Shown here in pieces: positions 55,797 through 59,850 of a stretch of 64,000 nucleotides of DNA (within the stretch, counting starts at the first letter, position 1; each line of letters starts with the position of its first letter). Below the pieces are notes generated by a model that had not been told where the DNA came from, made no database searches, and worked only from the letters and a program-made list of their open reading frames with translations. The stretch covers positions 1-64,000 of the forward strand of contig NZ_NHRY01000252.1 of the NCBI RefSeq assembly GCF_002937115.1, read 5' to 3'. The translations under genes were made by a program, and so were the position numbers. Source of the DNA: Rhodopila globiformis. GTDB lineage: Bacteria; Pseudomonadota; Alphaproteobacteria; Acetobacterales; Acetobacteraceae.

Positions 55797-56780
55797 TCAG
55801 CTCGTCGCCGAGCCCTGGCTGACGGCTTGCCCCTCGGCCCGCCCCTCGGCCTGCATCGTCTCGCGTCCCTCGGGCAGCGGGATGAACTCCGTCTCGTCGC
55901 CGGGCACCTTGCCGAACTGCTCGGACCGCCAGTCGGCCTTGGCCTGCTCGATGCGCTCCCGGCTGGAGGCAACGAAGTTCCAGAACAAATAGCGAGGCCC
56001 GTCCATCGCCGCGCCGCCCAACAGCAGCAGCCGCGCCCCCTGCGGCCCGGCGCGCAACGCCAGGCGATCCCCGGCCCGGAACACCAGCATGCGGCCGGGA
56101 GCGAAGCGGTCGCCCGCCACGTCGACCTCGCCGTCCACGACGTAGGCCGCGCGTTCCTCGTGCTCGTCGGGCAACGGCATAGCCGCGCCGGGGGACAGCA
56201 CGGCATCGGCGTAGAACAGCGGTGACGAGACCGCGACGGGCGCCGCCAGGCCCCAGCCCGTGCCGGCGATCAGCCGCAGGCGCGCGCCCCCGTCCTCGGC
56301 CAGCGGCAGGGTCGCGGCGGGATGGTGGACGAAGGCGGGCGGCGCCTCCTCGGCCGCCTGCGGCAGCGCGACCCAGGACTGGATGCCGAACAGCCGGTTG
56401 CCGTGGGCGCGCAGCGCCGGGTCGGTGCGCTCGGAATGGGCGATGCCCCGTCCGGCGGTCATCCAGTTCACGTCGCCGGGGCGGATCGGCTGCTGCGAGC
56501 CCAGGCTGTCGCGATGCAGGATCTCGCCCTCGAACAGGTAGGTGACGGTGGACAGGCCGATATGCGGGTGCGGGCGGACGTCCAGGCCGCGCCCGGCCAG
56601 GAACTCGCCCGGGCCCATCTGGTCGAAGAAGATGAAGGGGCCGACCATCTGCCGCTCCCGCGCGGGCAGGGCGCGGCGCACTTCGAATCCGCCGACGTCG
56701 TGGGCGCGCGGCAGCAGAACCAGTTCCACGCTGTCCGGCGACGCCGGGCGGGCGGGATCGCCAGTGGGCGGCAAGCTCAT
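55797..56780 (-). CDS. pirin-family protein (bicupin)
   Basis: Encodes 327 residues. The N-terminal cupin carries the pirin signature GLDVRPHPHIGLSTVTYLFE with metal-binding His residues, then RDSLGSQQPIRPGDVNWMTAG and IAHSERTD. The C-terminal cupin has DGEVDVAGDRFAPGRMLVF. Pirins are metal-binding proteins; some have quercetinase activity. The long acidic C-terminal tail (EGRAEGQAVSQGS) is unusual. A second pirin gene lies just upstream in the same direction. Confidence 0.88.
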   Translation of the reverse strand: MSLPPTGDPARPASPDSVELVLLPRAHDVGGFEVRRALPARERQMVGPFIFFDQMGPGEFLAGRGLDVRPHPHIGLSTVTYLFEGEILHRDSLGSQQPIRPGDVNWMTAGRGIAHSERTDPALRAHGNRLFGIQSWVALPQAAEEAPPAFVHHPAATLPLAEDGGARLRLIAGTGWGLAAPVAVSSPLFYADAVLSPGAAMPLPDEHEERAAYVVDGEVDVAGDRFAPGRMLVFRAGDRLALRAGPQGARLLLLGGAAMDGPRYLFWNFVASSRERIEQAKADWRSEQFGKVPGDETEFIPLPEGRETMQAEGRAEGQAVSQGSATS

Positions 56781-56914
56781 TGTCCTTCTCCCCTGTCCAG
56801 GTCGTTAAGCCGGCGGGCCGTGTGCCGCCGGCGGGGCGGACACACGACGCCGGGCGCCGAGTCACCGCCCATTCGAGCCGGACGGCAAGCCGGGCGCTGC
56901 CGGCGGGCGGATCA

Positions 56915-57613
56915 TCAAACCGTGTCAACCAGGAGGATCTCCGCGTCCTCCACCGCCGTGATGCGCAGCACGTCCTCCTCCTGCACCGCTGCGCCGTCCC
57001 GGGCGGCGACCCGCACGCCGTTGACCTCGACGACGCCCGCGGCCGGCACGAGGTACGCCTTGCGGGCGGCTCCGAGCCGGTATTCCGCCGTCTGTCCCGC
57101 CGTCAGCGTCGCGCCCACCACCCGGGCATCGGCGCCGATGGGCAGGGCATCGTCGTCGGACGCGATGCCGCTGACGAGAGTGACGAAGCAGCCGGCGCGA
57201 TCCGTCTTCGGGAACGGCCTGGTCCCCCAGGACGGCGTGCCGCCCCGCTCCCGCGGCATGATCCAGATCTGGAAGATCCGGGTGACATCCGGCTCGAGAT
57301 TGTACTCGGCATGCTGGATTCCGGTTCCGGCGCTCATCACCTGCACGTCCCCGGCCTCGGTGCGTCCCTGGTTGCCCAGGCTGTCCTGGTGGGTGATCGC
57401 GCCCTGCCGGACATAGGTGATGATTTCCATGTTGGCGTGCGGGTGCGGCGGGAAGCCGCTCCGCGGGGCGATCTCGTCGTCGTTCCAGACATGCAACGTG
57501 CCCCAGTGCATGCGCCGCGGATCATGGTAGTCGGCGAAGGAGAAATGGTGGCGGGTGTCCAGCCAGCCGTGGTTGGCGCCGCCGAGCCGGTCGTAGGGCC
57601 GCAGTTCGATCAT
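56915..57613 (-). CDS. pirin-family protein of the YhaK/YhhW type
   Basis: Encodes 232 residues, the short pirin type: HGWLDTRHHFSFADYHDP, FPPHPHANMEIITYVRQG (metal His residues), HQDSLGNQG and MSAGTGIQHAEYN. The start MIELRPYDRLGGANHG is the family N-terminus; the frame extends 58 residues upstream without similarity. It is separated from the other pirin by 134 bases. It may act on flavonoids or in redox regulation; activity is not predictable. Confidence 0.9.
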   Translation of the reverse strand: MIELRPYDRLGGANHGWLDTRHHFSFADYHDPRRMHWGTLHVWNDDEIAPRSGFPPHPHANMEIITYVRQGAITHQDSLGNQGRTEAGDVQVMSAGTGIQHAEYNLEPDVTRIFQIWIMPRERGGTPSWGTRPFPKTDRAGCFVTLVSGIASDDDALPIGADARVVGATLTAGQTAEYRLGAARKAYLVPAAGVVEVNGVRVAARDGAAVQEEDVLRITAVEDAEILLVDTV

Positions 57614-58230
57614 GGGTCTTGTTCTCCATACCCGCAGGAGGGGTCTTCGTCCATCTGCCGGGCTTGTGGTTGGTCGGGACCCTACATTGGGTGGCAACGG
57701 GAAGAAGGAAGAGAAACAATGGAAATCCATTGTTTCCGAAACCGCCTGCTTCGTGCGCGGCGGCCGATCCCGGTGTGTCGAAGGCAACGCGATCGAAGAC
57801 GGCCGCCCGGTGCGAGGCGCGGATCAGGGCGTCCCTGCTGAACGGGTTTGGATGCCCGATGGTCACCATGAAGCACGAGAAAAACGTCGTCGAACCGCCT
57901 TGTCGTATGCTGCCGCAGCTGGTATCACTGGAACGTGACTCGAGTCTGTCTCTGAAAATGATAAATATCCGCTCACCACAAGCGGATTTTTCTTCCGGAC
58001 CGGAAGTGAAAACCCGCCTTGCTACTGCAAGCGCAACATCCGGCAGAATGGCGCCAGAGCGTCTTCAGTCGGATATCGTATCAATAGTCAAACAAGAAAA
58101 TTCCAAGGTCCGGCGGCGTCGAGGCCATGCGTCTGACCCGCCCTTGCCCGGAACCCACGCAGGACGCGGCGAAACGCCAGCTGCTGACGCTGTTTGCTCC
58201 CGTAACGTCCACGGTCCTGAGGAAACAGTC
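57614..58230 (+). other. leader region of the metallopeptidase with a terminator-like hairpin
   Basis: There is no gene in 617 bases. At 57967-57991 ATCCGCT/AGCGGAT forms a 7-bp stem with a 7-base loop and a TTTTTC run on the plus strand, followed directly by the palindrome CTTCCGGACCGGAAG (57992-58006). No plus-strand gene precedes it, so it may be an attenuator or the end of a small RNA. Confidence 0.5.
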
Positions 58231-59631
58231 ATGGCAACCAAGCCCACCCCTTCCACAGCCCAGGTCAACGCATGGGAAGATGATCCCGGGCCGGCGGTCG
58301 AAATCGCCCGCCCGGCGCCCGACCTGTCCCGGCAGCCGCTCGCCTACGCGTTTCCCCATCCGCAACCCGCGGCGGACAAATATCAGCCGGGAACAGCGGA
58401 ATTCCGTTACTGGACGGCAGCGGAAGCGCTGCGCCGCGGGGCCGACTTCTGGGCTCCGCTGCTGCCCGTCAAGTCATGGCAACCCGGCAGGACGCTGTCC
58501 GTGAAACTCGACGAGGGCGAGGATCTCAACGCCTTCTACGACCGTCAGGCGCTCAACTTCTTCCACGGCCCCGGCGCGGACGGCACGCTTGTCTTTTCCG
58601 GAGAAAGCCCCGACGTCGCATGCCACGAAATGGGCCACGCTATCCTCGATGCCGTGAAGCCGGACCTGTGGGACGCCGCCAGCCAGGAGGCCGCCGCTTT
58701 CCACGAGGGGTTCGGTGACATCAGTGCAATCCTTTCGGCACTGCAGCTTCAATCCCTGCGCATCGCCATCCTGAACGACACCGGCGGTCATCTCTACCGC
58801 AGCTCCCGCCTGTCCCGCCTTGCCGAACAGCTCGGCGCCGCCATCCGCGCCCAGTCGCCCGACGCGGTCGAACCCGACTGCCTGCGCAACGCGGTCAATT
58901 CGTTCACCTATTCCGATCCGGCGGAGCTTCCGTCCTCGGCACCCGCTTCGCACCTGTCCTCCGAGCCGCACTCCTTCTCCCGTGTAATGTCCGGCGCCGT
59001 CTTCGAGTGCCTGGCCGGCATGTTGACGGCCTCGGCCGCTGACGCCAAAAAGCCGACCGAGCAGGAACTGGCCCGCGTCAGCACCGAAACGGGCAAGATC
59101 GTGATCGATGCCGTGGTTGCTGCGCACGTGGCGCCCAACTTCTTCGCGCAGGTGGCAGCCCAGATGGTCCAGGTCAGCGGAGCGGTCAACGCCGCCTATC
59201 CCCCGGTTCTCCGAGGTGTTTTCGTGCGCCGCTCGATCCTGTCGCTTGAAAGTGTCACCAGCATGGCCGCGACCGCGCTGATGCCGGTTGCCGCCGTCGC
59301 GGCGCCCGCCGCCCAGCTCGCCCTGCCGGGCACCCGCTACGGCCTTGCGCAGCCGCTGCTCGTGCAGGCGCCGGCCCAGCCGCGTCATTTCGCCATCACG
59401 TCCGGCGCCCCCAACGGCAGTTCGGTGCAGCCGCCCAACGCGCTGGAGGCGGCCACCGCCTTCGTCGACGATCTGTTCCGCAATGGCCGCGTCGATGACC
59501 AGGGGCTGCCGGCCAGCAACGCCCGGCTCGTCCACACCAGACGCCGCCTGCGTACCCACCGCCTGAAGGCCGAAGCGGCCGGCGTCCGCCTGGAACGGCA
59601 GCTGTTCGACTGCGGCTTCTGCTGCCGCTGA
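58231..59631 (+). CDS. zinc metallopeptidase of gluzincin type, uncharacterised
   Basis: Encodes 466 residues. The zinc site HEMGH (about 132-136) in SPDVACHEMGHAILDAVKP and the downstream AAFHEGFGDISAIL (Glu about 159) give an HExxH...E arrangement like thermolysin/fungalysin enzymes. LNAFYDRQALNFFHG (about 99-113) resembles the stretch before the site in those families. There is no signal peptide. The C-terminal third has a hydrophobic Ala-rich segment, a basic region (HTRRRLRTHRLKAEA) and a Cys-rich end (DCGFCCR). ATG 58231 has a GAGGAAA ribosome binding site. The gene is followed after three bases by a 71-codon gene, probably a functional partner. Confidence 0.8.
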   Translation: MATKPTPSTAQVNAWEDDPGPAVEIARPAPDLSRQPLAYAFPHPQPAADKYQPGTAEFRYWTAAEALRRGADFWAPLLPVKSWQPGRTLSVKLDEGEDLNAFYDRQALNFFHGPGADGTLVFSGESPDVACHEMGHAILDAVKPDLWDAASQEAAAFHEGFGDISAILSALQLQSLRIAILNDTGGHLYRSSRLSRLAEQLGAAIRAQSPDAVEPDCLRNAVNSFTYSDPAELPSSAPASHLSSEPHSFSRVMSGAVFECLAGMLTASAADAKKPTEQELARVSTETGKIVIDAVVAAHVAPNFFAQVAAQMVQVSGAVNAAYPPVLRGVFVRRSILSLESVTSMAATALMPVAAVAAPAAQLALPGTRYGLAQPLLVQAPAQPRHFAITSGAPNGSSVQPPNALEAATAFVDDLFRNGRVDDQGLPASNARLVHTRRRLRTHRLKAEAAGVRLERQLFDCGFCCR

Positions 59632-59634
59632 GCC

Positions 59635-59850
59635 ATGTCCGACCAGGGCAACAACCAGCGGCAACAGACTACGGGTAGCCAGATCGTTCCTGACACGCCC
59701 GACAAGGAGGCATTCATTCGGGGACTCCTGGCCCGCGGCGAGGCCGCGCGGCCAAACCCCGACGGCTCGCTTCCGAAGGGGGCGACACATGAAATCGTCG
59801 GCGATGCCCCGAACGGCTTGCCGATTGTCCGCCGCCGCCGCTTCTACTGA
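59635..59850 (+). CDS. small protein paired with the metallopeptidase
   Basis: A 71-residue, hydrophilic protein starting three bases after the peptidase stop. It reads SDQGNNQRQQTTGSQ (disordered), KEAFIRGLLARGEAARPNPD (helical), then LPKGATHEIVGDAPNGLPIV and the basic end RRRRFY. The tight spacing indicates translational coupling. It could be a substrate, inhibitor or targeting factor of the peptidase. I have no characterised family name for it. Confidence 0.7.
   Translation: MSDQGNNQRQQTTGSQIVPDTPDKEAFIRGLLARGEAARPNPDGSLPKGATHEIVGDAPNGLPIVRRRRFY

What the first reader, a model, noticed from the sequence alone, without database searches (positions are those of the whole stretch)
57967..59850. 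Uncharacterised metallopeptidase plus small partner behind an attenuator-like leader
A cytoplasmic HExxH...E peptidase with a Cys-rich C-terminus is followed after three bases by a 71-residue partly disordered protein ending RRRRFY. A terminator hairpin and a 15-base palindrome lie in the 5' leader although no plus-strand gene precedes them. The set looks like a self-contained, regulated protease module: the small protein may be its substrate, carrier or inhibitor. This is my best candidate for an undescribed system in the window.
Basis: inference. Interest (0 to 1): 0.6.

Follow-up and report, generated by a model that had tools for sequence, protein, structure and literature searches.

The report
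Intracellular protease with free tail copy
A bacterial protein-cutting enzyme of the thermolysin/fungalysin fold, apparently working inside the cell, is encoded next to a tiny protein that turns out to be a separate copy of the enzyme's own tail end, which suggests that the tiny protein binds and controls the enzyme.

Summary
The pair is real. P1 (58231-59631) is a signal-less, propeptide-less metallopeptidase. Its model (pLDDT 90) matches M36 fungalysins (Z 27) and M4 thermolysins (Z 22), and the zinc-site and catalytic residues are conserved. P2 (59635-59850) matches no known family. I show that it is a free-standing paralogue of P1's own C-terminal ~50 residues (profile alignment score 40.3; best of 200 column shuffles 18.5; same helix plus beta-hairpin order in the models).

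Intact P2 genes lie beside the peptidase in nine distinct loci, from Alphaproteobacteria, Acidobacteriota and Actinomycetota, two of them on the opposite strand. A frameshifted remnant lies there in Sinorhizobium medicae. Several relatives lack it. In 16 genomes or plasmids the module occurs only in the peptidase tail and in this gene. dN/dS is about 0.17.

Most likely P2 acts in trans on the peptidase, binding where the tail sits, as an inhibitor or folding partner. Protealysin-emfourin and SpeB-Spi are analogues. Binding and inhibition are inferred, not shown.

The "attenuator" leader is not supported: the hairpin exists, but such sites are expected by chance and the leader is not conserved. 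The Cys-rich end is only partly conserved.

The parts
57967..57987 (.). Hairpin followed by a T run on both strands, in the divergent spacer between a pirin gene (-) and the peptidase gene (+); role unproven
   Evidence: Scan 2 found against 1.8 expected; fold z -2.8; leader not conserved in the genus
58219..58223 (+). GAGGA ribosome-binding-like site of the peptidase gene
   Evidence: Read directly from the sequence
58231..59631 (+). P1, propeptide-less M4/M36-fold metallopeptidase, 466 aa, no signal peptide
   Evidence: Model pLDDT 89.9, pTM 0.92; M36 Z 27.1, M4 Z 22; Pfam M4 at E 0.0011, below the curated cut-off
58624..58638 (+). HEMGH zinc-binding and catalytic motif (residues 132-136)
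   Evidence: H132, E133 and H136 invariant in 54 relatives including viral ones
58699..58719 (+). FHEGFGD third zinc-ligand motif (residues 157-163)
   Evidence: H158, E159 and D163 invariant
58969..58971 (+). H247 of PHSFSRV, probable counterpart of thermolysin His231
   Evidence: At least 90% conserved; assignment to His231 by motif order, inferred
59440..59616 (+). C-terminal module of P1 (residues 404-462): helix 404-417, strands 443-447 and 452-456, then F-x-C-G
   Evidence: Models; lies beyond the part matched by M4/M36 structures
59629..59634 (+). Stop codon TGA and one codon; P2 starts in the same frame. Same frame also in L002, not in L003, L047 or L049, so not a conserved read-through
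59635..59850 (+). P2, 71-aa free-standing copy of the P1 C-terminal module behind a disordered ~27-residue N-terminus
   Evidence: hhalign to full-length peptidase profile E 9.7e-6, score 40.3 against null maximum 18.5; helix 492-501 and strands 520-525, 531-535 in the joint model; dN/dS 0.17

Best explanation
P1 is a zinc endopeptidase of the M4/M36 fold that acts inside the cell and starts directly with the mature fold, without the N-terminal propeptide that its secreted relatives use for folding and inhibition. Instead it carries a C-terminal module of about 50 residues (helix, then a beta-hairpin ending R-x-x-F). P2 is a free-standing paralogue of that module, made in about the same place and time, often by coupled translation. 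Shown: the homology, the linkage, the selection and the shared secondary structure. Inferred: P2 binds P1 at or near the place that the tail occupies in cis and thereby holds the protease in check or helps it fold, as propeptide-like inhibitors do. I put about 0.95 on the paralogy, about 0.6 on direct P1-P2 binding and about 0.4 on inhibition as the main outcome.
For: P2 family aligns to the full-length peptidase profile exactly at its last ~50 residues, E 9.7e-6, score 40.3; 200 column-shuffled controls reach at most 18.5, reversed 14.0; cut-out tail profile against small profile E 9.9e-8, probability 94. Same element order in the model. In 16 genomes or plasmid records the module is found only in the peptidase tail and in the adjacent small gene. 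P2 is beside the peptidase in window, L002, L003, L004, L047, L048, L049 and, convergently, L055 and L061. No copy of P2 without a peptidase among 397 genomes of the family, 385 of the class, or the plasmids. P2-bearing loci sit on the deepest bacterial branches, so P2 may be ancestral with later losses. Own tail against own P2 is only 20-26% identical while P2s are 43% alike, so the duplication is old and P2 is kept as its own family. Precedents: protealysin operon encodes its inhibitor emfourin, which binds the active-site region 1:1 (PMC9505478); SpeB-Spi co-transcribed pair (PMC3462683).
Against: Several relatives with an intact active site live without P2 (L008, L052-L054, L058), and in S. 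medicae P2 is a frameshifted remnant while the peptidase is open, so P2 is not an essential antidote. A pseudo-peptidase clade that lost the zinc site keeps the tail module (L009-L014), so the module is not only an active-site plug. No structure of the complex: the tools give no inter-domain error or coordinates.
Confidence: 0.5

Rival explanations
1. Assembly partner: the C-terminal module mediates self-association of the peptidase, and P2 caps or bridges subunits, so it sets the oligomeric state rather than blocking the active site.
For: Module is kept in a pseudo-peptidase clade without zinc ligands, and truncated in one relative that keeps the catalytic motifs (L057): it is separable from catalysis. 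P2 is optional across the tree.
Against: No direct evidence of oligomers; typical operonic small partners of proteases are inhibitors.
Confidence: 0.2
2. P2 is a substrate or carrier: its disordered N-terminus is cut by P1 and the module serves only as docking tag, releasing a peptide.
For: N-terminal ~27 residues disordered while the module is conserved.
Against: The N-terminal part is not conserved in sequence or length between loci, as a released signal peptide would need; no export genes are shared between loci.
Confidence: 0.15
3. P2 is a decaying duplicate without function.
For: Lost or frameshifted in several lineages.
Against: dN/dS 0.17-0.36; conserved ATH...G.P..R.RF pattern across three phyla; confident fold.
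Confidence: 0.05
4. Leader hairpin acts as an attenuator that controls the operon.
For: Hairpin with U run in a divergent spacer, z -2.8.
Against: Count of such sites equals the shuffled expectation; leader not conserved even in the genus member with the same operon; no Rfam hit.
Confidence: 0.07

Closest known systems
Protealysin-emfourin operon (M4 protealysin-like protease plus inhibitor, Serratia proteamaculans)
   Same: Intracellular thermolysin-fold protease with a small downstream gene of the same operon (PMC9505478)
   Different: Protealysin has an N-terminal propeptide and no such C-terminal module; emfourin is not described as a copy of the enzyme's tail, and P2 matched no Pfam family
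SpeB-Spi (C10 cysteine protease and its co-transcribed inhibitor)
   Same: Small cognate gene coupled to the protease gene (PMC3462683); from my own knowledge, Spi resembles the SpeB propeptide, i.e. inhibitor derived from the enzyme's own regulatory part
   Different: Unrelated protease class; the copied part there is N-terminal pro-segment of a secreted enzyme, here a C-terminal module of a cytosolic one
Fungalysin M36 and thermolysin M4 peptidases
   Same: Same catalytic fold (Z 27 and 22) and zinc motif
   Different: No N-terminal propeptide, no signal peptide, extra C-terminal module beyond residue ~396, below Pfam cut-off
Viral M4-like peptidases in IMG/VR contigs (L082-L158)
   Same: Same core (25-31% identity) and a C-terminal segment in the same place with G-[KN]-L-x-R
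   Different: Often a long Cys-rich extension; no free-standing copy seen; homology of the end segment itself not significant by profile comparison

Membership tests
M4/M36 gluzincin metallopeptidases | HExxH with downstream Glu zinc ligand in (N/H)Exx(S/G)D | tested here: met
   H132, E133, H136, E159, D163 invariant in 54 sequences
M4/M36 gluzincin metallopeptidases | Thermolysin/fungalysin fold | tested here: met
   VIA-align Z 27.1 to 7qp3 (290 residues, 2.8 A), Z 22.4 to thermolysin; Foldseek E 3e-5
M4/M36 gluzincin metallopeptidases | Sequence reaches the curated Pfam cut-off (PF01447 or PF02128) | tested here: not met
   19.9 bits against a cut-off of 22.4 for PF01447; Agrobacterium relative is annotated M36 and three members match M36 down to E 1.4e-6
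M4/M36 gluzincin metallopeptidases | N-terminal propeptide preceding the mature enzyme | tested here: not met
   Mature-fold alignment starts at residue 5-10 of 466; only short low-complexity N-termini in relatives
Emfourin-type inhibitors | Sequence similarity to emfourin | tested here: inconclusive
   P2 matched no Pfam or NCBIfam family at E <= 1; whether these copies hold an emfourin model was not checked
Emfourin-type inhibitors | Inhibits an M4 enzyme by binding the active-site region | not testable with these tools
   Needs protein
Propeptide-like (self-derived) protease inhibitors such as Spi | Inhibitor homologous to a regulatory segment of its own protease | tested here: met
   Homologous to the enzyme's own C-terminal module; that this module is regulatory is inferred
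Propeptide-like (self-derived) protease inhibitors such as Spi | Encoded beside and with the protease gene | tested here: met
   Nine loci
Propeptide-like (self-derived) protease inhibitors such as Spi | Inhibition in trans | not testable with these tools
   Needs protein

The most novel reading that the evidence does not exclude
A family of cytosolic, propeptide-less thermolysin-fold proteases is controlled from the C-terminus: a tail module in cis and an anciently duplicated free copy in trans compete for one site, so that the free copy sets the active fraction of the enzyme. The same core with a similar tail is widespread in viruses, where the control would be in cis only.
Probability: 0.25. 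Interest if true: 0.65.

Novelty: new variant of a known kind. Interest (0 to 1): 0.48.

Why it matters
Nearly all thermolysin- and fungalysin-like enzymes are known as secreted proteases held by N-terminal propeptides. Here is an intracellular branch without propeptide, carried by plasmids and chromosomes of soil and symbiotic bacteria and, as a core, by many viruses, whose small partner is demonstrably a copy of the enzyme's own tail. That makes a definite, cheap prediction (P2 binds P1 at the tail's site) and gives a handle on what these unannotated proteases do. The pair was invisible to Pfam, NCBIfam, PHROGs and PADLOC.

Tried and rejected
Attenuator: hairpin real but unremarkable and not conserved. 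Ribosome-site-sequestering hairpin 58190-58228: z -1.45 in the short fold and 0.49 in the longer one, not supported. Programmed read-through to a P1-P2 fusion: in frame only in window and L002. Cysteine switch by C461: Cys missing in L053, L055 and L058 although their zinc sites are intact. Module as a general tag on other proteins: none in 16 genomes or plasmids beyond chance-level hits. RiPP link: a proteusin-like cluster lies downstream in Mesorhizobium L048 only, other loci have other neighbours. Defence system: PADLOC gives only two stray hits. L056 convergent small ORF as P2: no profile support. L079 hit (E 0.002) is not a recognisable P2. First profile comparison with 4 and 5 sequences was too weak and was redone with more. 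Rows with P2 alone were misaligned in A7, so the joint model used A8. Structure of the P1-P2 complex could not be judged: no coordinates or inter-domain errors returned. Viral end segment against bacterial tail: not significant. PDB sequence search with the peptidase profile: nothing.

Full report
What was checked. The window belongs to a 7.2-Mb draft genome whose closest relatives in the collections are Acetobacteraceae. The two reported ORFs exist as described: P1 at 58231-59631 and P2 at 59635-59850 on the plus strand. P1 has a GAGGA ribosome site seven bases before its ATG, and homology begins at residue 12, so the start is plausible. They lie between a divergent pair of pirin genes and a rarA/mgsA gene, with no shared function apparent.

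The leader. The hairpin at 57967-57987 folds better than most shuffles (z -2.8), but the scan finds two terminator-like sites where 1.8 are expected, and the two are the same hairpin read on both strands. The 596-base leader has no convincing counterpart in 28 other genomes of the genus, including G156, which carries the same gene pair. There is no Rfam match. I treat the attenuator as unsupported.

What P1 is. Pfam gives only a sub-threshold M4 match. A profile of 18 relatives and then of 54 including viral ones shows H132, E133, H136, E159 and D163 invariant and H247 nearly so, the set expected of an active thermolysin-type enzyme. AlphaFold2 gives a confident model (pLDDT 89.9, pTM 0.92). 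VIA-align places residues 10-395 on M36 fungalysins (Z 27) and residues 5-337 on thermolysin (Z 22) and 31-337 on protealysin (Z 20). So P1 begins with the mature fold and has no propeptide and no export signal. Residues 404-457, a helix and a beta-hairpin predicted with high confidence, lie beyond the part covered by those structures.

What P2 is. P2 has no Pfam, NCBIfam or PHROG family. Its relatives (L002, L003, L004, L047, L048, L049, L055) share F..GL..RGEA...GsLPpGATH.IvG...G.P.vkR.RFs. The tails of the peptidases read AA..FVddLf.RG.v.......TH.lv...gg.rL.R.lFdCG. The profile of eight small proteins, compared with the profile of the entire peptidase, aligns 49 columns at exactly this tail with E 9.7e-6 and score 40.3; the best of 200 column-shuffled versions scores 18.5 and the reversed profile 14.0. 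With the tail cut out the E-value is 9.9e-8, probability 94. In a joint model made by reading the single intervening TGA as tryptophan, P2 folds with pLDDT mostly 85-93 into helix 492-501 and strands 520-525 and 531-535, the same order as helix 404-417 and strands 443-448 and 451-456 of the tail. That agreement is independent of the sequence alignment, although it is weaker than a superposition would be because coordinates are not returned. Own tail and own P2 are 20-26% identical, P2s among themselves 43%, tails 35%: an old duplication, not a recent local one.

Linkage. P2 lies directly downstream in seven distinct loci with gaps from -62 to +124 bases, and convergently downstream in Embleya (L055) and Agrobacterium (L061; tblastn E 4e-6 in the local set). 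In S. medicae (L050, L059) the place after the peptidase holds pieces of P2 in two frames, a broken gene. It is absent after L008, the Rhizobium clade (L052, L053, L054, L057, L058) and, by profile, L051 and L056. On the peptidase tree the nine P2-bearing rows need five changes; they include the deepest bacterial branches, which fits an ancestral P2 with several losses, though the deep rows are long-branched. P2 without a peptidase was not seen: 397 genomes of the family, 385 of the class, the plasmid collection. A module search of 16 genomes or plasmid records returned only tails and adjacent P2s. Neighbourhoods otherwise differ, so the unit is these two genes. Selection on P2 is purifying (dN/dS 0.17-0.36), as strong as on P1.

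How it probably works. The enzyme lacks the N-terminal propeptide that relatives use to fold and to stay inactive. The extra C-terminal module is the natural candidate for that duty, and a free paralogue of it, made beside the enzyme and found nowhere else, most plausibly acts on the same site in trans. Known parallels are the protealysin operon, whose emfourin binds the active-site region 1:1 (PMC9505478), and SpeB-Spi (PMC3462683); that Spi resembles the SpeB propeptide is from my own knowledge. The step from homology to binding, and from binding to inhibition, is inference. Against a pure active-site plug: a clade of pseudo-peptidases (L009-L014) has lost HExxH and the third ligand but keeps the tail, and intact enzymes exist without P2. 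An assembly or folding role is therefore the main rival.

Verdict. New variant of a known kind (protease with cognate small partner), with a partner of unusual, now identified origin.

Noticed in passing
L009, L010, L011, L012, L013, L014: A clade of pseudo-peptidases in one related genus: HExxH became R-A-x-G-H/L, the third ligand Glu became Q or A, the HSFSR stretch is lost, yet the C-terminal module is kept.
   Followed up: partly
L082-L158: 77 viral contigs (IMG/VR, up to 530 kb) encode the same M4-like core, many with a long Cys-rich end (..EY.K.WKP.NN.GC..); no PHROG family matches the five tested. Virus type not determined.
   Followed up: partly
L015:1-2832, L016:1-2931, L017:1-2898: More distant relatives are fused behind a subtilase-like domain (GTSAATPQ motif, by eye) and followed by a gene that looks like a metallo-beta-lactamase-fold protein: another conserved unit of this fold.
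   Followed up: no
L019, L020, L026, L027: Another relative set (~470 aa) is followed by a gene whose product starts with a conserved L..A..PG..RLFGR-like motif.
   Followed up: no
L048:5746-17365: In Mesorhizobium sp. L-2-11 the pair sits between an S46 peptidase gene and a Nif11-leader/radical SAM RiPP cluster.
   Followed up: partly
L060:6076-9253: In Polymorphobacter megasporae an IS1380 element splits the peptidase gene; P2 downstream remains open.
   Followed up: partly
L057:5989-7011: Rhizobium sp. BG6 peptidase ends near residue 340 and lacks the whole C-terminal module.
   Followed up: no
window 58190-58228: Inverted repeat CTGTTTGCTC/GAGGAAACAG covers the ribosome site of P1; fold not better than shuffles in context.
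   Followed up: yes
window 55797-57787 (-): Two adjacent pirin-family genes of different subtypes (Pirin_C and Pirin_C_2).
   Followed up: no
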